Assembly (NCBI RefSeq): GCF_014850975.1 | Contig: NZ_JACXST010000002.1 | Location: 1,612,001-1,676,000, forward strand | Length of the DNA stretch: 64,000 bases | Reading direction: 5' to 3' | Source of the DNA: Methylomonas fluvii | GTDB lineage: Bacteria > Pseudomonadota > Gammaproteobacteria > Methylococcales > Methylomonadaceae | In this document: piece after piece, positions 8,113 to 54,779 of the stretch | Layout: every line of letters starts with the position of its first letter | Position numbering within the stretch: the stretch's first letter is position 1 | Made by a program: the position numbers and the translations under genes | Notes under the pieces: generated by a model | The model's input: only the letters and a program-made list of their open reading frames with translations | Databases searched by the model: none | What the model was told of the DNA's origin: nothing

Positions 8113-8306
8113 CGCACTACCCCGGTAACAGCGGCAATTGTCGGGCTTACGACAAATCACCGCCAATTCGTACGGTTGTTACTGACATCTCCTACCGCCC
8201 GCTCAGGCCACATCTCAAGCACAACGGGGCCTGGAGGCCCATCCGGTTAAATTGGATTGAATTTTGCTTCAGCTAAGCATTACTTTTCATTTAGCTGGGG
8301 CCAACC

Positions 8307-9161
8307 ATGTCAAATACGGTATTTTCCGAAATTCTAAGCGGTTTGTACGATAACCAAGTCATTCCCTATCTCGGACCGGGAGCGGTATTCGACGCCAAAA
8401 GCAAATTGACGCAAGAGCCGATGCCCGCCGACAGCGACAGCCTGATTTTAGCCATGAACGGCGGCAAACCGATGGCGCCGAAACTGATGTACGAGTTTCC
8501 GCGCGCAGCGATGAACCAGGAACTTAAGCGTGGCCGCAACTATGTAACGCAGTTTCTCGACAAGACTTACGGACAAATTCAATACACCCGCGCATCCATG
8601 CACGATTGGTTAAAAGAATGGCGGCCCAAATATGTGGTCGACGCGAATCGCGACACTCAATTGCAAGATAGCTATGCCGACGAAGAACACACCTTGATAG
8701 TCGGCGTTGCCCGCATCGTCGCCACCGCCTTTCGTTTTAAAATCTATCATTACGACGGCAGTGCCTATTTCGAAATTCCACAGGAACAAGTAGATAAAAA
8801 CCTGCCGATTTTGTTTAAACCCATGGGCACACCAAAACCGGAATCCAATTACATCGCTTCCGATGCCGATTACGTCGATTACATTACCGAGCTGATGGGC
8901 GGCTTCGCAATTCCGGACTTTTTAAAGGATTACCGCAAGGGCAAAAAATACCTTTTGCTGGGCCTGCCGCTCAACCGCGATTCCGAGCGCATGGTGATGA
9001 GCGACATCACCTACGGTGCCGACGAACATAGAGGCTGGTTTTTAAGAAAAAACCCTACCGACAAGGAAAAACGCTTTAGCGCGAAAATGGGCTTTGAGCT
9101 GATTAACGCCGACTGCCAGGACTTCCTGCAATCGGTGCAAGCTTCGGCTGTCGCTGCTTAA
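8307..9161 (+). CDS. SIR2-like domain protein
   Basis: A 284-residue cytoplasmic protein with the layout of SIR2-like domains. It has a first glycine loop NQVIPYLGPGA (residues 16-26), a strand KYVVDANRDTQLQ in the place of the sirtuin TTNxD segment, and then LFKPMGTPKPESNYIASDADY where sirtuin-like proteins have the catalytic H-G. The histidine is replaced by methionine (PMG), so NAD hydrolysis by the usual mechanism looks doubtful; binding of NAD or a related ligand is still possible. It is a single gene preceded by a GGGG ribosome site, convergent with the GGDEF operon. SIR2-like domains occur in both defence NADases and housekeeping proteins. Confidence 0.65.
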   Translation: MSNTVFSEILSGLYDNQVIPYLGPGAVFDAKSKLTQEPMPADSDSLILAMNGGKPMAPKLMYEFPRAAMNQELKRGRNYVTQFLDKTYGQIQYTRASMHDWLKEWRPKYVVDANRDTQLQDSYADEEHTLIVGVARIVATAFRFKIYHYDGSAYFEIPQEQVDKNLPILFKPMGTPKPESNYIASDADYVDYITELMGGFAIPDFLKDYRKGKKYLLLGLPLNRDSERMVMSDITYGADEHRGWFLRKNPTDKEKRFSAKMGFELINADCQDFLQSVQASAVAA

Positions 9162-9171
9162 AAAATCCCGC

Positions 9172-9202
9172 AGCTCGGCCGGTGAGGACACGCGGCCGGG
9201 CT
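9172..9202. terminator. candidate bidirectional terminator hairpin
   Basis: Arms AGCTCGGCCG (9172-9181) and CGGCCGGGCT (9193-9202) pair over 10 bp with one wobble, around an 11-nt loop. It lies between two convergent genes. There is only a short A-run on one side, so it may be a weak terminator. Confidence 0.45.
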
Positions 9203-10124
9203 AAACGGTCGAATAGCTTCCACGAGCGCCATTTCGACCGCTTTCCTTAGCCAAATACAACTGCCGATCAGCCTCGTCCAGCAACTCGGACGGCAATTGT
9301 TGCAGCGCAGGCACCACCACCGCAAAACCGGCGCTAATCGTCACCCAAGGCGAAGCGCTGGAGCGGGTATGCGAAATTTGCTGCGCTTCAACACGCCGAC
9401 ACAGCAATTCAGATACGCGCTGCGCGCCTTCGCTGTCGGTTTCCGGCATCAGCATCACAAACTCCTCCCCACCGTAACGCGCCACCAAATCGCCGGAGCG
9501 GCTCACCGAGGCCGCCAATATCGTTGCCACCTGCCGCAAGCAAATATCGCCGGCGCCATGCCCGTGGCAATCGTTGTACGCTTTAAAATAATCGACATCC
9601 ACCATGACTAAAGCCAACGGCAACTGATTGCGCTGCGCGCGTTTCCATTCATTTTCCAAGACCTGATCGAAGCGCCGCCGATTGGGGATGCCGGTGAGAC
9701 CGTCCATCCAGGCCATCGCTTCCAACATGTCCGTCATTCGTTTCAGGCGAATATGATTGCGGATCCGCGCCTTAACCACCGGCAAATAAAACGGCTTGGT
9801 AATGTAGTCCATCGCCCCCAAATTCAGCCCGTATTCTTCGTTGGTCGCCGCGTTCATCGCCGTCACAAATATCACCGGGATTGCCGCAGTTTGCGGGTCG
9901 CTTTTCAGACGCCGGCAGACTTCATAACCGTCCATGCCCGGTATCATCACATCCAACAGGATCAGATCGGGCGGACCTTGCCTGTCAATGGCCTCCAGCG
10001 CCGCCTCGCCGCTGACCGCAACCTTGATGCGATACTCATCGATCAAATTTTCCGCCAATACCTGAATGTTGGTTGGCGTATCGTCTACGATCAAAATCAA
10101 GGGCTTGGAGATCTCGGTAGTCAT
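9201..10124 (-). CDS. response regulator with GGDEF domain (diguanylate cyclase)
   Basis: A 307-residue two-domain protein. An N-terminal receiver (about residues 8-125) has the phospho-acceptor region DLILLDVMIPGMDG and the conserved lysine in YITKPF. The C-terminal GGDEF domain (about 140-300) has the active motif ARYGGEEF and the substrate-site NRRRFD. It should make cyclic di-GMP when phosphorylated (PleD/WspR-like architecture with a single receiver). It follows the hybrid kinase by 2 bp, which makes that kinase the probable phosphate donor. AGAGGAT precedes the ATG. Confidence 0.92.
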   Translation of the reverse strand: MTTEISKPLILIVDDTPTNIQVLAENLIDEYRIKVAVSGEAALEAIDRQGPPDLILLDVMIPGMDGYEVCRRLKSDPQTAAIPVIFVTAMNAATNEEYGLNLGAMDYITKPFYLPVVKARIRNHIRLKRMTDMLEAMAWMDGLTGIPNRRRFDQVLENEWKRAQRNQLPLALVMVDVDYFKAYNDCHGHGAGDICLRQVATILAASVSRSGDLVARYGGEEFVMLMPETDSEGAQRVSELLCRRVEAQQISHTRSSASPWVTISAGFAVVVPALQQLPSELLDEADRQLYLAKESGRNGARGSYSTV

Positions 10125-10126
10125 GA

Positions 10127-13100
10127 CTATCCTCTGTTCTGTCGCTGTGACGCTATCAAGGCCAGCAACTCCGCCAAGCTCACTCTAGCCTGACCGTAGT
10201 CGATATTGCCGACCTGTTTTTCTATTTTTTTTATCAGTAGCCGGGTTTCCGGACAAGGCAGCGCGCTCTTCAATTGCTCGATCAAGTCATTGGGGACAAA
10301 ATCGCTACCTTCCAACAAGTCGCGTAACTGGCCGGCCAACTCGTTTGCCGCCAGCCAATCGGCGGCTTGGTTCTGTGCCTCGGCAACGGCACCCATAGCG
10401 GTGAAATCGGCAATCGTGTTCAGGGTGGCCGCCAGACTGGTCTCACAAGCGGCGAGGCAAGCGTCGAACGGCATACCGACATGCAAAGCTTCCTCCAGGT
10501 TCGCCGCGGCCCGGCTGAGTTCCACAGCGCCAAGCACGCCGGCAGCGCCCTTCAAATTGTGCAGCAAATCAACCGCCTGCTCGATTTTTCCGGCGCTATG
10601 CAACGCTCTCAGACGTTGCATGGTATCGGCAAACTTATCCCTAAAACACTCGAACAACAGTTGCAATTTATGGCTATCCTCACCAATCATAATCCGAATA
10701 TACGCCATATCAAATCCAGGCAGTTCACTGGATAAGCAGGAGGCTATAGACTCTGGCTTCGGCACTGCCGGCTCGACCGACACACTGCGTTCGGACGGTT
10801 TTATCCAGCGCAACAAAGCCGCCATCAAAGTCTGCGGCAACACCGGCTTGCCAATATGATCGTTCATGCCGGCAGCGTAACAATCGTTGCGCTCGCGCTC
10901 CTGCACCGCTGCCGTCATGGCAATGATGGGCAAATCGGCAAACCGCGCATCCTGGCGGATCAGCCGGGTCGCTTCGATACCGCTCATCTCCGGCATTTGT
11001 AAGTCCATCAGCACCGCGTCGTAACGGTTTTTCCTGACCGCCTCGACCCCTTCCCGGCCGTTGTTAACCACGGTGACGCGCAAGCCGGAGCTTTCCAGAT
11101 ATTCCCGGGCCACCATTTGGTTGACCTCGTTGTCTTCCACCAACAAAATGCGCGCCCCGCGTATCGAAGCCGCCATACCCGCCAGCAGCGGCCGGCTTTT
11201 TTCATTGCCCTGCTCGGGGTTGCCGCCCTGCAAACGTGTCAAGGCTTCCAGCAAGGTGGATGGCATCACCGGCTTGACCAAAATATCATCGGGTACCGCA
11301 TCGCCGGCCGCACTCAATAATTTCTCGCGACTGAAGGCTGTCACCATAATTACCACCGGGGCGCTCCGAATCTCGGTGCGGCGCACCATCTCCCGAATTT
11401 CCCGGGTAACCTGGACGCCATCCAGACCGGGCATTTTCCAATCCAGTAACACCAATTCGAAGTCCCGATTAGCGTCGTTGGCCGCGCGCAGCGCTTCCAA
11501 AGCTTGCGCCCCTGATGCCGCTTCCTCGACCTGAAACCCCCAGGCCAGCAAAATATCGCGCAACATCTGCCGGGAAATGTCCAAATCGTCGACGATCAAC
11601 ACCCGCATGCTTTGCAGATGGCCGGGAATTTGTCGAGCTTTCTGCTCGGACGGAAACGGCAGCAGCAGCGTAAACTCGAATAGGCTGCCTTCGCCAAGCT
11701 GGCTCTGCACGGCTAAATTACCGCCCATCATTTCCACCAGCCGCTTGCTGATGGTCAATCCCAGCCCGGTACCGCCGAAGCGGCGGGTAATCGAACCGTC
11801 GGCCTGGGTAAAGGCATGAAACAAATGCTCAAGCTGCTCCGCAGACATGCCAATACCGGTATCACGTACCGAAAAACTCAAGGTGGAGTAGCCGTGGGTT
11901 TTTGCCACCTGCGAAACTTTGATATGAATTTCTCCGGCCTCGGTAAATTTCACCGCATTACCCACCAGATTGTTCAATATTTGCCCCAAGCGCAGCGCAT
12001 CGCCAATCAAGCGCGGCGGCAAAGCGGAATCCAGTTCCAGCACCAGTTCCAGGCCTTTTTCCTCGGCGCGGACGATGAACAGATTCAGCACATTCTCCAG
12101 CACATCCTCCAAACTGAACGCTTCGGTCTGCAATTCCATGCGGCCGGCTTCGACCTTGGAATAATCGAGAATGTCGTTGGTAATCCCCAACAAGGCCAGC
12201 GATGAGGTGTGGATTTTCCTTAGATAATCGCGCAGCTTGGGCGACAGGTCGCTGTTCAAAGCCAAATCCGACAAACCGATGATCGCGTTCATCGGCGTGC
12301 GGATTTCATGACTCATATTTGCCAGAAACATGCCTTTGGAGCGCGAGGCGGCTTCCGCTTCGTCTTTGGCTTGCAATAATTCTTCGGTGCGCTGCGCTAC
12401 TTCGGCTTCCAGGCGGTCGCGATGCCCGGTCAGGGTTTCATCGCGTAATTGGATCTCGCCCAACATGGTATTAAAGGCCTGCACCAAATCGCCAATCTCG
12501 TCTCGGTCGCGCTGCGCCACCCGCAAGGTGTAATTTTTATCCTCGGCGATAAGCCGCGCGGCCGTAGCCAACTCCTCTATCGGCCTGGAAATGATGCGCT
12601 GCAAGCGGATTGCCAACAGATAAACCAATATCAGCGCCAGCCCCGCCGCCCCCAAACTCTTGCCCAAATCGACCAGTTGATCGTTCCATTGCGCCGTGAA
12701 ATCGGCTTGCAACAGCACATAACCGACCAACTCGGTATTTTTGATCACCGGCGTAAATAGCTCGGCGCGCCGGCTCCAGAAGTTGGTGCGCAGTTCGCGG
12801 AACGGTCGGCGAAAGTCGCTGGGTACATCAATATTCGCCGTTCCCCGGCTCCACGAAGCGAGTACGCTACCATCGACGGACACCATCCAGGCCGCATACA
12901 GCTCCGGCCGGTCTTTCAACGACTCCAGCAGACGAGTGGCTTCGGATTTATCGGCAAACACCAACGCCGCTTGGCCGTTTTCGGCTAACACGTCCGCCAA
13001 ACTGGACAATTCGTGCAACACGCTGCGATAGCGGCTCACCACTGAGCTGACCACCATCACGGACAGACTGACGAATAGGCATACCGCACAACTAAACATG

Positions 13101-50577: not shown

Positions 50578-50689
50578 CTGTTACCGCTCCGCACTGAACT
50601 AGCTAAATTGCGGTAGTAAGCTTATCGTCCTTGCAATTTACCGCCAGTGTACCAAGGTTCTAAACCAGCCTAGATCAAACACTTATGCG

Positions 50690-51463
50690 CTAAGCGGCCA
50701 GTAACCAATCATGCACTAGGCGACAAAACGCGTCCGGTTCCTCAACATATAACCAATGGCCGGTATCTGGAATTTTCGCGATATTGGCTTGCGGAAACAC
50801 TGCATAAATCGCTTCTTCATCCAAGTATTTTGAATTGCCGCCGCCAATAAACAAAACCGGCCTGACGAACCGGCTGTCGCCGACATCCGGAAAACCGACG
50901 ATGTGATGGGCATTTTTTTGAATAATATCCAGATTGATCCGCCAGTAGTAATTTCCGTCTTTCAGCAGCAGGTTTTGCAACAAAAACTGTCGGTAAGCTA
51001 AATCCGGAACCGCCTCGGCTAGCGCCTCTTCCGCTTGCTTTCGGTTGCCGATGCTATCCACCGGCAAACGGCTGAGAGCGTCTACAAGATCGTCAAAGCT
51101 ATGCTGATAACTTACCGGGGCGATGTCCGCAACGATTAAACCAGCGACCCGCTGCGGATAATGCAAGGCAAACCACATCACTGCCTTGCCCCCCATGCTG
51201 TGCCCGAGTAAATGAGCACAGGGAATCTCGTGGCTATCCATAAAAGCCAACAAATCGGCGGCCATACTGGGATAATCCAGCACATCGGCATGCGGCGAGC
51301 TGCCGTGATTGCGCATATCCAACACATAAACATGCCGCTGCTCGGCCAGGCGTTTGGCCACCGAACGCCAGTTACGCGACGCAGCCAGAAAACCATGCAC
51401 AATCAGTAATGGAGTGTCGCCGGGTTCGCCGAAACTATCGTAAGCCAGCTCGATGGTCGTCAT
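50690..51463 (-). CDS. alpha/beta hydrolase (YbfF-like esterase), duplicate copy 1
   Basis: A 257-residue alpha/beta hydrolase. The oxyanion segment is IVHGFLAASRNW, the nucleophile Ser89 is in LLGHSMGGKAV, and the C-terminal histidine is in IPDTGHWLYVEEP. The family member YbfF cleaves short acyl esters, including acyl-CoA in vitro. The ATG at 51463 is preferred over a frame start at 51538 that reads back into the DUF445 gene. This copy has lost its normal upstream region: a cut DUF445 fragment and an IS lie before it, so its expression may be altered. Confidence 0.9.
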   Translation of the reverse strand: MTTIELAYDSFGEPGDTPLLIVHGFLAASRNWRSVAKRLAEQRHVYVLDMRNHGSSPHADVLDYPSMAADLLAFMDSHEIPCAHLLGHSMGGKAVMWFALHYPQRVAGLIVADIAPVSYQHSFDDLVDALSRLPVDSIGNRKQAEEALAEAVPDLAYRQFLLQNLLLKDGNYYWRINLDIIQKNAHHIVGFPDVGDSRFVRPVLFIGGGNSKYLDEEAIYAVFPQANIAKIPDTGHWLYVEEPDAFCRLVHDWLLAA

Positions 51464-51474
51464 CGTCACTGCTC

Positions 51475-51721
51475 TCAAGCTAAGCCGAAGATTGCGCCCA
51501 ACACCCCGCCGAACACGCCACCCCATACCACCAGCCAACCCAAATGTTGCTTGATGATGGATTGCACCATTTCCTTGACCAATTGCGGCGTTAATTCGCT
51601 CAAACGTCTGTCGATCACCATTTCGATTTTGCCGGTCAAATCCTCACCAATCTTGTGCGCATTCAATCCTTGCTGCAAAGCGTGCTTAAACCGTTCGGAC
51701 TCCACCATTTCCGATAAGGTG
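51475..51721 (-). pseudogene. DUF445 gene fragment (C-terminus) cut at the IS
   Basis: The last 82 codons of the DUF445 membrane-protein gene, identical to the C-terminus of the intact copy at 53980-54702. It includes RLSELTPQLVKEMVQSII and the final membrane segment. The coding sequence stops matching at 51721, where the IS begins. No start of its own. Confidence 0.92.
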
Positions 51722-51728
51722 ATGACAT

Positions 51729-51740
51729 GGACTCCTCCTC
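51729..51740 (+). repeat. IS subterminal inverted repeat, left
   Basis: GGACTCCTCCTC, 7 bp inside the left end. The same GAGGAGTCC word also occurs in the ribosome-site region of the transposase gene (51787-51795). Confidence 0.85.
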
Positions 51741-51798
51741 ACCCCTAGCGGTGTCACAATGCACCCGAAAATTTAAACGGGACAAAGAGGAGTCCGAA

Positions 51799-52812
51799 AT
51801 GAATCGTAACGTAGTGGGTTTGGATATAGCAAAACAAGTGTTTCATCTGTTCATGATGCTCGAGGGCAAAGCGATCAAGCGGAAACTAAAGCGCTCGGAA
51901 CTCCTGGAATTCATAGCTCAACTACCACCAAGCCTGATCGCGCTGGAAGCCTGCGGTGGTTCGCACCACTGGGCACGGTCGTTCCAAGCACTGGGTCATG
52001 AGGTCGTGCTATTGAACGCCCGTTACGTGAAAGCCTTCGTGGTGGGCAACAAAAACGATTTCAACGATGCCGAGGCGATCTTTACGGCGGCGCGGCAACC
52101 GAACAAACGTACGGTGGCCATTAAAAACATGGAACAACAAGACCTGGCCATGGTGCATGGCATTCGCCAAGGCAAAGTCGAGGAGCGTACGGCCTTGATC
52201 AATCAGATTCGCGGGCATTTGGCCGAGCGCGGGCTGGTGTTGCCGAAAAGTGCCCATCAGGTCAGAAAACAGTTGCCGTTGATGTTGGAAGATGCCGAGA
52301 AGCAACTGTCGACGCTCAGCCGCGCGCTGTTTGCCGAACAGTATCAAGCCCTGGTGGCGATTGATGAGGCCATCAAAACTATGGATCGGCAGATCGAAGC
52401 GCTGTGCCGGCAAAATGCCTTGAGCAAACGTCTGATTGCCATTCCGGGCATAGGCCCGCTCACCGCCACTTTGGCCGCCGCCGATGTGGGGGATGGCAAA
52501 GGTTATACGTCCAGTCGTGATTACGCCGCCAGTTTGGGCGTGGTGCCCAGACAGCATAGTAGCGGCGACCGCCAAGTCTTGCTCGGCATCAGCAAACGGG
52601 GTAATCGGCGCTTGCGCACCTTGTTGATCCACGGCGCCCGGGCGGTATTGAAATACTGCGGCGACAAGAGCGACCCGTTGAGCCGCTGGCTACAAGCCTT
52701 AATCGAACGGCGAGGCTTCAACAAGGCCGCCGTGGCCTTAGCTAACAAGAATGCCCGGATTATCTGGGCACTGGCCACTGGCTCTGGCGAATATGCGGCC
52801 CAAGTGGCTTGA
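51799..52812 (+). CDS. IS110-family transposase/recombinase (IS1111 group)
   Basis: A 337-residue DEDD recombinase. The N-terminal RuvC-like domain (about 1-155) has acidic residues in VVGLDIAKQVF, ALEACGGSHHW and KNDFNDAEAI. The C-terminal Transposase_20 domain (about 205-300) has IPGIGPLTATLAA and the serine-bearing QHSSGDRQVLLGISKRGNRR. The ATG at 51799 follows GAGGAG. The family moves through a circular intermediate and is guided by an element-encoded RNA, which in the IS1111 group lies downstream of this gene. The gene is unbroken. Confidence 0.95.
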   Translation: MNRNVVGLDIAKQVFHLFMMLEGKAIKRKLKRSELLEFIAQLPPSLIALEACGGSHHWARSFQALGHEVVLLNARYVKAFVVGNKNDFNDAEAIFTAARQPNKRTVAIKNMEQQDLAMVHGIRQGKVEERTALINQIRGHLAERGLVLPKSAHQVRKQLPLMLEDAEKQLSTLSRALFAEQYQALVAIDEAIKTMDRQIEALCRQNALSKRLIAIPGIGPLTATLAAADVGDGKGYTSSRDYAASLGVVPRQHSSGDRQVLLGISKRGNRRLRTLLIHGARAVLKYCGDKSDPLSRWLQALIERRGFNKAAVALANKNARIIWALATGSGEYAAQVA

Positions 52813-52825
52813 TTGAGTGATGTCC

Positions 52826-52898
52826 GAGTTGCCCACCCTTTGCCCAACGCCTCCACACGAGAGAAGGGTTCCGGCGTCGGGCAAAGCGTGGACAACTC
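52826..52898. repeat. 26-bp imperfect inverted repeat after the transposase gene
   Basis: Arms 52826-52851 and 52873-52898 pair over 26 bp with three mismatches around a 21-nt loop (GAGTTG...ACGCC against GGCGT...CAACTC). It starts 14 bp after the transposase stop. It may separate transposase transcription from the guide-RNA region, or be part of that RNA. Confidence 0.8.
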
Positions 52899-52949
52899 TC
52901 AATCCGGTGATGCAAACGCTATAAACGAGTTCAACAGATTGCGGAGGCA

Positions 52950-53120
52950 AGTCACTCAAAAGTGATGACATTCAACAGGTCAGACCGGTGCTTTTAAATC
53001 CCGTTTAGCGCATAGGTTCTTTAGAAACCGTTAAGGTGTTAGTGGAAAAAGCGCGCGGATAGATTCATCAGGGTCCGAAGGTCAATCAAGCACCTTCATC
53101 AAGAGACCGAATATATGGCT
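52950..53120 (+). ncRNA. candidate IS guide RNA (bridge RNA/seekRNA)
   Basis: This lies in the 376-bp right non-coding end, where IS1111-group guide RNAs are found. CCGTTTAGCGCATA (53001-53014) is the reverse complement of the right flank 53189-53202 except one base, and that change allows a G-U pair. CCGTTAAGGTG (53028-53038) equals the left flank 51711-51721 at 10 of 11 bases. Between them GGTT...AACC can form a small hairpin, so the two words would face each other in a target-binding loop. TCACT/AGTGA forms another hairpin at 52952-52965. The ends given here are guesses; the strand is assumed from the transposase. Confidence 0.65.
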
Positions 53121-53173
53121 GCAATCTCGATCTCTGTTGGAAACATTATTTTTGGGAATCTTGGCTGGCAATT

Positions 53174-53185
53174 GGGGAGGAGTCC
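53174..53185 (-). repeat. IS subterminal inverted repeat, right
   Basis: GGGGAGGAGTCC matches the complement of the left repeat at 11 of 12 positions, 3 bp from the right end. Confidence 0.85.
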
Positions 53186-53188
53186 ATA

Positions 53189-54226
53189 TATGCGCTAAGC
53201 GGCCAGTAACCAATCATGCACTAGGCGACAAAACGCGTCCGGTTCCTCAACATATAACCAATGGCCGGTATCTGGAATTTTCGCGATATTGGCTTGCGGA
53301 AACACTGCATAAATCGCTTCTTCATCCAAGTATTTTGAATTGCCGCCGCCAATAAACAAAACCGGCCTGACGAACCGGCTGTCGCCGACATCCGGAAAAC
53401 CGACGATGTGATGGGCATTTTTTTGAATAATATCCAGATTGATCCGCCAGTAGTAATTTCCGTCTTTCAGCAGCAGGTTTTGCAACAAAAACTGTCGGTA
53501 AGCTAAATCCGGAACCGCCTCGGCTAGCGCCTCTTCCGCTTGCTTTCGGTTGCCGATGCTATCCACCGGCAAACGGCTGAGAGCGTCTACAAGATCGTCA
53601 AAGCTATGCTGATAACTTACCGGGGCGATGTCCGCAACGATTAAACCAGCGACCCGCTGCGGATAATGCAAGGCAAACCACATCACTGCCTTGCCCCCCA
53701 TGCTGTGCCCGAGTAAATGAGCACAGGGAATCTCGTGGCTATCCATAAAAGCCAACAAATCGGCGGCCATACTGGGATAATCCAGCACATCGGCATGCGG
53801 CGAGCTGCCGTGATTGCGCATATCCAACACATAAACATGCCGCTGCTCGGCCAGGCGTTTGGCCACCGAACGCCAGTTACGCGACGCAGCCAGAAAACCA
53901 TGCACAATCAGTAATGGAGTGTCGCCGGGTTCGCCGAAACTATCGTAAGCCAGCTCGATGGTCGTCATCGTCACTGCTCTCAAGCTAAGCCGAAGATTGC
54001 GCCCAACACCCCGCCGAACACGCCACCCCATACCACCAGCCAACCCAAATGTTGCTTGATGATGGATTGCACCATTTCCTTGACCAATTGCGGCGTTAAT
54101 TCGCTCAAACGTCTGTCGATCACCATTTCGATTTTGCCGGTCAAATCCTCACCAATCTTGTGCGCATTCAATCCTTGCTGCAAAGCGTGCTTAAACCGTT
54201 CGGACTCCACCATTTCCGATAAGGTG
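53189..54226. repeat. 1,038-bp direct repeat, copy 2
   Basis: Second copy of the block at 50684-51721. It begins immediately after the IS and continues without a break into the rest of the DUF445 gene, so this side is the intact locus on the right. Confidence 0.95.
53195..53968 (-). CDS. alpha/beta hydrolase (YbfF-like esterase), duplicate copy 2
   Basis: Identical to the protein at 50690-51463 (257 residues, Ser89 in GHSMGG). This copy keeps its native upstream neighbour: it starts 11 bp after the stop of the intact DUF445 gene, so it is co-transcribed with it. Its downstream side now runs into the IS instead of the original sequence. Confidence 0.92.
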   Translation of the reverse strand: MTTIELAYDSFGEPGDTPLLIVHGFLAASRNWRSVAKRLAEQRHVYVLDMRNHGSSPHADVLDYPSMAADLLAFMDSHEIPCAHLLGHSMGGKAVMWFALHYPQRVAGLIVADIAPVSYQHSFDDLVDALSRLPVDSIGNRKQAEEALAEAVPDLAYRQFLLQNLLLKDGNYYWRINLDIIQKNAHHIVGFPDVGDSRFVRPVLFIGGGNSKYLDEEAIYAVFPQANIAKIPDTGHWLYVEEPDAFCRLVHDWLLAA

Positions 54227-54702
54227 TGCTGCATTTTTTCGGTAAAGGGTTGTTTTAGCGGCAATAACGCCTCTTCGCCGCCCATCATCAACAACATGCC
54301 ACCGAACGAAGAAGCCATAATGGAAGATACCAAGCCTTCGTAAACCTTGTCGTAATCGACAGCGCTTAACAAAGACTGCAAATTCAACACCTTTCCGCCC
54401 TGCTGTTCCTCTGTTTCGATGAACTGTTCGATATTTTCCACCGTGAAAAATTGCTGCATCATCAAGGCCTTGATCGATGCCTTAAACTCTTCGAAACGCG
54501 CAGGGATAATCCCCGAACCATATAAAAACGGCACCTTTTCGAACAGCATATGGATAGCCAACCAGTTAGTAATTGCTCCGGAAAATGCAAAAAAACCGAT
54601 CGCTTTCAGTGTTTCCGGATAAAACGGGCTGACATAGCCCGCAGCGATAATCAGCAGGGAGATAAAGTTGGTTAAAAAGCTTTGATTTAGTAATTTTTTC
54701 AT
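53980..54702 (-). CDS. DUF445 family membrane protein, intact
   Basis: A 240-residue inner-membrane protein. It has two N-terminal helices (about 8-50, FISLLIIAAGYVSPFYPETLKA and the family motif GAITNWLAIHMLFEKVP). A long cytoplasmic helical region follows, with a final membrane segment (about 215-240, GWLVVWGGVFGGVLGAIFGLA). Family role unknown. The ATG at 54702 is chosen; in-frame starts at 54720 and 54741 have no better ribosome site. It is divergent from ogt and operonic with the esterase. Confidence 0.85.
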   Translation of the reverse strand: MKKLLNQSFLTNFISLLIIAAGYVSPFYPETLKAIGFFAFSGAITNWLAIHMLFEKVPFLYGSGIIPARFEEFKASIKALMMQQFFTVENIEQFIETEEQQGGKVLNLQSLLSAVDYDKVYEGLVSSIMASSFGGMLLMMGGEEALLPLKQPFTEKMQHTLSEMVESERFKHALQQGLNAHKIGEDLTGKIEMVIDRRLSELTPQLVKEMVQSIIKQHLGWLVVWGGVFGGVLGAIFGLA

Positions 54703-54779
54703 TATTTTGTTAAGTAACATACGAACAGCAAATTTTGCCAAACACTGTTGCCGTAGGCCAGCATAAATTGGGACTAAAT

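What the first reader, a model, noticed from the sequence alone, without database searches (positions are those of the whole stretch)
52999..53040. IS1111-group element carries guide-like matches to both of its own flanks
Seen in sequence: 53001-53014 is the reverse complement of right flank 53189-53202 at 13/14 bases, the one difference being G-U compatible. 53028-53038 equals left flank 51711-51721 at 10/11 bases. A GGTT...AACC hairpin sits between. Known: IS110/IS1111 elements use an RNA (bridge RNA/seekRNA) whose target loop has left and right guides for opposite strands, and in IS1111-type elements it lies downstream of the transposase. The opposite orientations of the two matches fit that design. 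The right match is longer than guides usually described, which makes this copy worth studying.
Basis: partly seen in the sequence, partly recalled or inferred. Interest (0 to 1): 0.85.

Follow-up and report, generated by a model that had tools for sequence, protein, structure and literature searches.

The report
RNA-guided insertion flanked by duplicated DNA
A jumping gene that finds its landing place with a small guide RNA sits here between two identical copies of a 1-kb piece of chromosome, and each half of the guide matches a different one of the two original sites, which suggests that such elements can duplicate host DNA by choosing their two ends separately.

Summary
The matches are real and lie in the target loop of a conserved IS1111-group bridge/seekRNA (10 of 40 consensus pairs with two-sided changes); guide words track their own flanks in 17 copies. 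The element (51722-53190, core TG) separates two identical copies of a 1036-bp chromosomal segment (50686-51721, 53191-54226) that is single and contiguous in nine close relatives. So the left flank is site X and the right flank site Y, 1 kb apart before the event. X is a good whole target (15 of 19 pairs). Y has no exact left-guide match (0 of 9) but pairs 10 of 10 with the right guide, the only such site among 16,974 TG sites examined. Of 74 related copies only this one has a 10-of-10 right match. Best reading: the RNA-guided recombinase joined its left end at X and its right end at Y on a sister chromosome, making a tandem duplication. Two other elements show right-end duplications with exact RE|TG junctions but weak guide matches. 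Homologous crossover between two ordinary insertions remains a serious rival.

The parts
51722..53190 (+). IS1111-group insertion sequence (1469 bp); TG core at 51720-51721 and 53191-53192
   Evidence: ends set by the empty site of copy C3a in two relatives and by conserved ends of relatives; five copies in the genome, identical over the 1466 bases searched
51799..52812 (+). transposase/recombinase, 337 aa (longer ORF from 51727, 361 aa)
   Evidence: PF01548 and PF02371; NF033542 IS110 family RNA-guided transposase, 327 bits
51727..51738 (+). left subterminal inverted repeat ATGGACTCCTCC
   Evidence: sequence; exact inverse of 53176-53187
53176..53187 (+). right subterminal inverted repeat GGAGGAGTCCAT
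   Evidence: sequence
52938..53172 (+). predicted bridge/seekRNA body, closing stem 52938-52952 with 53160-53172
   Evidence: alignment of 20 sequences, consensus fold, pair counts; helix coordinates converted by hand from alignment columns
52986..53057 (+). target-binding loop: stem 52986-52995 with 53047-53057, inner pairs 53000-53002 with 53042-53045
   Evidence: the 10-pair stem has 4 pairs with two-sided changes
53001..53012 (+). right target guide (53001-53010) plus complement of core TG (53011-53012); pairs with top strand of Y
   Evidence: 10 of 10 with one G-U; covaries with flanks in 17 copies
53015..53029 (+). hairpin between the two guides
53028..53038 (+). left target guide (53028-53036) plus core TG; pairs with bottom strand of X
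   Evidence: 8 of 9; covaries with flanks in 14 copies
50686..51721 (.). left copy of the duplicated segment, from core of Y to core of X (exact identity runs 50684-51721)
53191..54226 (.). right copy of the duplicated segment (exact identity runs 53189-54226)
50677..50697 (+). uninterrupted site Y: left half has 0 of 9 exact left-guide matches, right half pairs 10 of 10 with the right guide
54216..54236 (+). uninterrupted site X: left half 8 of 9, right half 7 of 10 with G-U
53980..54741 (-). intact DUF445 gene that spans X in the right copy; the left copy keeps only a 77-aa piece (51475-51708)
53195..54043 (-). alpha/beta hydrolase gene, present twice (also 50690-51538); Y lies just past its stop codon

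Best explanation
An IS1111-group element, active judging by its identical copies, made a tandem duplication by using its two target guides at two different sites. Shown: the flanks come from X and Y, which lie 1034 bp apart core to core in relatives; X matches the left guide well and the right guide moderately; Y matches only the right guide, completely. Inferred: during or just after insertion at X, the right end (RE-TG) was joined to the right half of Y on a sister chromosome that had no element at X, which places a second copy of the Y-to-X segment after the element. This could be one event on two sister DNAs, a capture by the right end of a freshly inserted copy, or a head-to-tail element dimer whose inner RE-LE junction attacked Y; the data do not separate these. 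The product keeps one intact DUF445 gene, which a plain insertion at X would have cut.
For: Exact 1038-bp direct repeat abutting both element ends. Segment single in nine relatives, same X-Y distance. Of 16,974 TG sites in 136 kb of this genome none reaches the 18 of 19 pairs of the joined flanks, and Y is the only one with 10 of 10 right-guide pairs. Genome-wide, TGCGCTAARCGG occurs exactly nine times: five in the element guides, Y twice, two elsewhere. Among 74 copies the window copy alone has a right match of 10, and no copy has a left total under 4 while Y has 3, so Y would be an odd ordinary target. Two further elements have tandem duplications whose junction is exactly RE|TG: 3 of 81 right ends tested against 1 of 74 left ends, that one being the window copy itself.
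Against: One copy only; the survey found no second element with both flanks duplicated (75 flank pairs). In the two other right-end duplications right-guide pairing is poor (6 and 2 of 10), so right-end joining need not be guide-led. Allowing one mismatch, the right half-site is no commoner or rarer in the genome than its reversed control (91 against 93 matches). Both half-sites were examined because they lie at the junction. The element missing from the right-hand X demands an element-free sister or a later loss. The core at Y is AG or AA in eight of nine relatives, so TG at Y is recent and its history is unknown. For IS621, target-target recombination was not seen (PMC11208158, passage).
Confidence: 0.55

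Rival explanations
1. Two ordinary insertions, one at X on one sister chromosome and one at Y on the other, followed by homologous crossover inside the two 1.47-kb element copies. This gives the same product, with both outer sites empty.
For: Needs only known processes. Some related copies sit at sites with weak left and longer right matches (for example L133, left 4 of 9, right 8 of 10), so insertion at Y is thinkable.
Against: Needs two independent insertions 1 kb apart in the same orientation in one cell, neither yet fixed. Y has 0 of 9 exact left matches, total 3 with G-U, below all 74 copies examined.
Confidence: 0.2
2. The tandem duplication came first by microhomology (TG at both sites); its junction happened to be a near-perfect target and the element then inserted there in the ordinary way.
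For: The junction X-left/TG/Y-right scores 18 of 19, the best of the 74 copies on left plus right pairs; the two sites share TG.
Against: A chance duplication junction would rarely be a near-perfect target: 0 of 16,974 TG sites score as high. Needs two rare events in order.
Confidence: 0.08
3. Assembly artefact or mixed population: the false join of two contig ends.
For: Reads were not available to me; five identical copies of the element exist.
Against: Contigs of 1.7 to 2.0 Mb, no N in the window; an artefact would not be expected to place the join exactly at RE-TG and at one of very few complete right-guide sites.
Confidence: 0.07

Closest known systems
IS1111-group insertion sequences with seekRNA (ISEc11, ISPa11, ISKpn4; PMC11187229, passages and section 7 read)
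   Same: Downstream guide RNA, top-strand complement before bottom-strand match, subterminal inverted repeats, 7-bp left extension (TGATGAC here), target-specific insertion without extra bases
   Different: Ordinary products have both flanks from one site; here they come from two sites and 1036 bp are duplicated
IS621 bridge-RNA recombinase (IS110 group; PMC11208160 passages and sections 9 and 12; PMC11208158 passages)
   Same: Left and right target guides for opposite strands, dinucleotide core, related recombinase; rare deletions and inversions between insertion sites reported in E. coli
   Different: RNA on the other side of the gene and guide order reversed; I saw no duplication described in the passages read
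IS-mediated tandem duplication by homologous recombination (general knowledge, recalled)
   Same: An IS at the junction between direct repeats
   Different: Here the breakpoints sit at sites that match the element's guide halves and the outer sites are empty

Membership tests
IS1111 group of the IS110 family | DEDD/Transposase_20 recombinase | tested here: met
   PF01548, PF02371 above cut-off; NF033542 327 bits, cut-off 140; weak sequence match to solved ISCro4 and IS621 transposases over the C-terminal part, SG motif aligned. Catalytic residues not tested one by one
IS1111 group of the IS110 family | subterminal inverted repeats | tested here: met
   12-bp exact pair at 51727-51738 and 53176-53187 (sequence)
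IS1111 group of the IS110 family | structured guide RNA downstream of the transposase gene | tested here: met
   conserved fold with covariation. Four of five whole-structure measures exceed all 500 shuffles; the count of further pair types does not (24 against 23.8, 296 of 500). No Rfam family matched at gathering threshold
IS1111 group of the IS110 family | guides complementary to both strands of the target, top-strand guide first | tested here: met
IS1111 group of the IS110 family | both flanks derive from one uninterrupted target | tested here: not met
   not met for the window copy. Of the four other copies, C3a and C1a are contiguous in relatives, C3b only roughly (25 to 126 unaligned bases between the flanks), C1b unresolved. 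This describes this product, not the element's membership
IS1111 group of the IS110 family | RNA expressed and bound by the recombinase; circular intermediate | not testable with these tools
   no RNA or biochemical data

The most novel reading that the evidence does not exclude
The two halves of a bridge/seekRNA target loop can act on two different DNA sites in one transposition event, so that IS1111 elements naturally make guide-addressed tandem duplications (and, with the sites in the other order, deletions). Right-end capture at an internal TG also doubles the guide-RNA gene, as in L218 and L242, offering a route to new guide sequences.
Probability: 0.4. Interest if true: 0.78.

Novelty: new variant of a known kind. 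Interest (0 to 1): 0.6.

Why it matters
Bridge recombinases are being developed as genome editors, and the structural paper suggests that poor target-target recombination helps to prevent unintended rearrangements (PMC11208158, passage). A natural copy whose ends sit at two half-matched sites with a duplication between them would point to another route: one guide half may be enough at a site if its match is long. It makes a clear question testable: are the left and right guides separable? It also gives a rule for finding such events: a right flank with a long right-guide match whose uninterrupted site has no left-guide match.

Tried and rejected
Tried and led nowhere: Rfam at gathering threshold (no hit). 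The genomic copy C1b lies in a variable region beside a YD-repeat (Rhs-like) gene and a fragment resembling an IS110-family transposase (both recognised by eye from ORFs, no family search), so its empty site could not be established. Two 35-bp left-end fragments 276 bp apart in G001 lie in a local tandem repeat and were taken as old fragments. L126 has an altered right end and only 32 bp of repeat, so I did not count it. One search looked for 30-base direct repeats in 42 of the 47 loci; 11 had some (10 of them Bathymodiolus symbiont loci), only the four strongest diagonals were printed, and it was not a boundary test; searches are.

Rejected: a target-site duplication in the usual sense (1036 bp is far too long, general knowledge). 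The idea that the outer Y is the footprint of an excised copy: in copies C1a and C3b the right junction reads AG with TG on the left, so TG at both Y copies fits a TG core already present before the event; this is inference, and relatives show AG or AC at C1a while the core of C3b is not resolved. Single-sequence RNA folding was only weakly better than shuffles (z -1.46, 19 of 200 as good); the conserved fold rests on the alignment.

Rows dropped: L119 (altered right end) and L123, L131, L144 (right end not aligned) were not in the 17-copy guide test; three of its rows have no left flank. In one search, 75 flank pairs were measured (L218 and L242 twice each); 8 rows were set aside as short or without a recognisable left end and 5 as repeats of earlier rows. 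The 60 stretches are a chosen part of the hits, which itself searched 14 chosen genomes of the 64 with a match among 311 (where only two candidates per genome were scored). Of the 36 of 37 same-genus genomes that matched the segment, I aligned nine at X and Y.

Full report
Observation. The right match reduces to core TG plus 10 target bases, since TA at 53189-53190 is the element's end. Alone, the right match is rare (11 of 3000 random TG-flanks do as well) and the left is not (220 of 3000).

The element. A 1469-bp IS1111-group element (51722-53190) with an uninterrupted 337-aa recombinase frame, 12-bp subterminal inverted repeats and TG at both edges. The genome (5.59 Mb, 4 contigs) has five copies, identical over the 1466 bases searched.

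The RNA. A 20-sequence alignment of the non-coding region gives a consensus of 40 pairs, 10 with two-sided changes. Of cells, 96.4% pair against 93.4% in shuffles, and sliding the partners by 1 to 3 columns gives 30 to 43%; one of five measures, further pair types, does not exceed shuffles. The two guide words lie in the loop region of one stem, either side of a hairpin. Across 17 copies they pair with their own flanks better than with shuffled ones. Words related to the element's own ends lie outside this loop: TGATGACAT at 52963-52971 equals the left edge (core plus left end), ATATATGG at 53111-53118 is complementary to the right end (sequence). Donor-binding bases in a multi-loop were already predicted for many IS1111 RNAs (PMC11208160, section 12).

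The duplication. The element separates two identical 1038-bp direct copies (50684-51721, 53189-54226), of which 1036 bp run from core TG to core TG. In nine aligned relatives the segment is single and X and Y lie 1034 bp apart (1033 in one). The left flank is X, inside the DUF445 gene; the right flank is Y, just past the stop codon of the hydrolase gene. Both outer sites are empty. The right copy keeps DUF445 whole.

Guides against X and Y. With G-U allowed, X pairs 8 of 9 left and 7 of 10 right; Y pairs 3 of 9 left (0 exact) and 10 of 10 right; the joined pair scores 18 of 19, which none of 16,974 TG sites in 136 kb of this genome reaches, while 9 (X among them) reach X's 15. The other four copies score 11 to 14. 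Exact right half-sites of the form TGCGCTAARCGG outside the elements and the two Y copies number two in the whole genome; with one mismatch allowed the form is as frequent as its reversed control (91 against 93). In relatives the core at Y is AG or AA in eight of nine and CG in one; at X none of the nine reads CCGATAAGG (closest CCGATAGGG, three of nine), and the core is TG in seven and TA in two. So some of the matching bases of both half-sites are recent in this lineage.

Other copies in this genome. C3a and C1a are simple insertions into sites contiguous in relatives; C3b is so only roughly, with 25 to 126 unaligned bases between its flanks; C1b is unresolved. C1a and C3b have TG on the left and AG on the right.

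Survey. The 60 fetched stretches plus earlier loci gave 75 flank pairs; only the window copy has both flank ends recurring on the other side, and L126 has one. Two elements have doubled right ends: in L218 (G221, one contig) RE-TG is followed by an exact 304-bp repeat of the element's last part, in L242 (G030, three contigs) by 646 bp, of which the first copy lacks 71 bp; both joins lie exactly at RE-TG and at an internal TG. Their right-guide pairing is weak (6 and 2 of 10). They show that the right end can be joined to an upstream TG, not that the right guide is always in charge. Each carries the guide region twice.

How it works. Shown: the structure, the ancestry of the segment, the match pattern. 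Inferred: joining of the right end to Y on a sister chromosome by the recombinase, held by the right guide. In IS621 the cut leaves the right-target strand as a covalent phosphoserine (PMC11208158, passage); from this I infer that a right join to a different DNA is chemically thinkable. An element dimer with an inner RE-LE junction, or capture by a newly inserted copy, would give the same result. The strongest rival is homologous crossover between an insertion at X and one at Y on two sisters; the lack of a left-guide match at Y weakens it without excluding it.

Literature. Searches of the held library for 'IS110 family' with 'tandem duplication' and for 'IS1111' with 'tandem duplication' and 'insertion sequence' returned no papers; 'IS110' with 'one-ended transposition' returned two, seen as a listing only; 'bridge recombinase' returned seven, of which I read passages of two (in the first only its reference list named the term). 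Rare deletions and inversions between IS621 insertion sites in E. coli are reported (PMC11208160, section 9). I met no report of a natural guide-addressed duplication in these searches (others); most subscription papers are not held, and I did not see Supplementary Note 1 of that paper.

Verdict. An ordinary member of a known group, but this copy records an unusual product: a new variant of a known kind.

Noticed in passing
L218, reverse strand, 8423-10192: IS1111 element in G221 whose right end is followed at TG by an exact 304-bp repeat of its own last part, so the guide-RNA region is present twice in tandem.
   Followed up: partly
L242, reverse strand, 8238-10303: IS1111 element in G030 with a 646-bp doubled right part joined exactly at RE|TG; the first copy lacks 71 bp.
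   Followed up: partly
L007 and L008, element edges: TG on the left and AG on the right edge: perhaps the donor core stays left and the target core right when cores differ. Five of 74 copies have a right core other than TG.
   Followed up: partly
window 52963-52971 and 53111-53118: Conserved words in the RNA that match the element's own two ends lie either side of the target loop, candidates for donor guides in a nested layout.
   Followed up: partly
L226, right flank: Right flank AGGCTATT departs from the TGRGTATA shared by other copies in the same genome, a possible right-end rearrangement.
   Followed up: no
L009 12101-12716 and 14223-14838: 616-bp direct repeat at 97% within a YD-repeat (Rhs-like) gene region beside genomic copy C1b.
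   Followed up: no
G189 copies, L199-L209: Ten of the twelve flank pairs measured in this genome read CCAAAGTG on the left and TGGGAATTGCTG on the right, so this element probably targets a repeat family.
   Followed up: no
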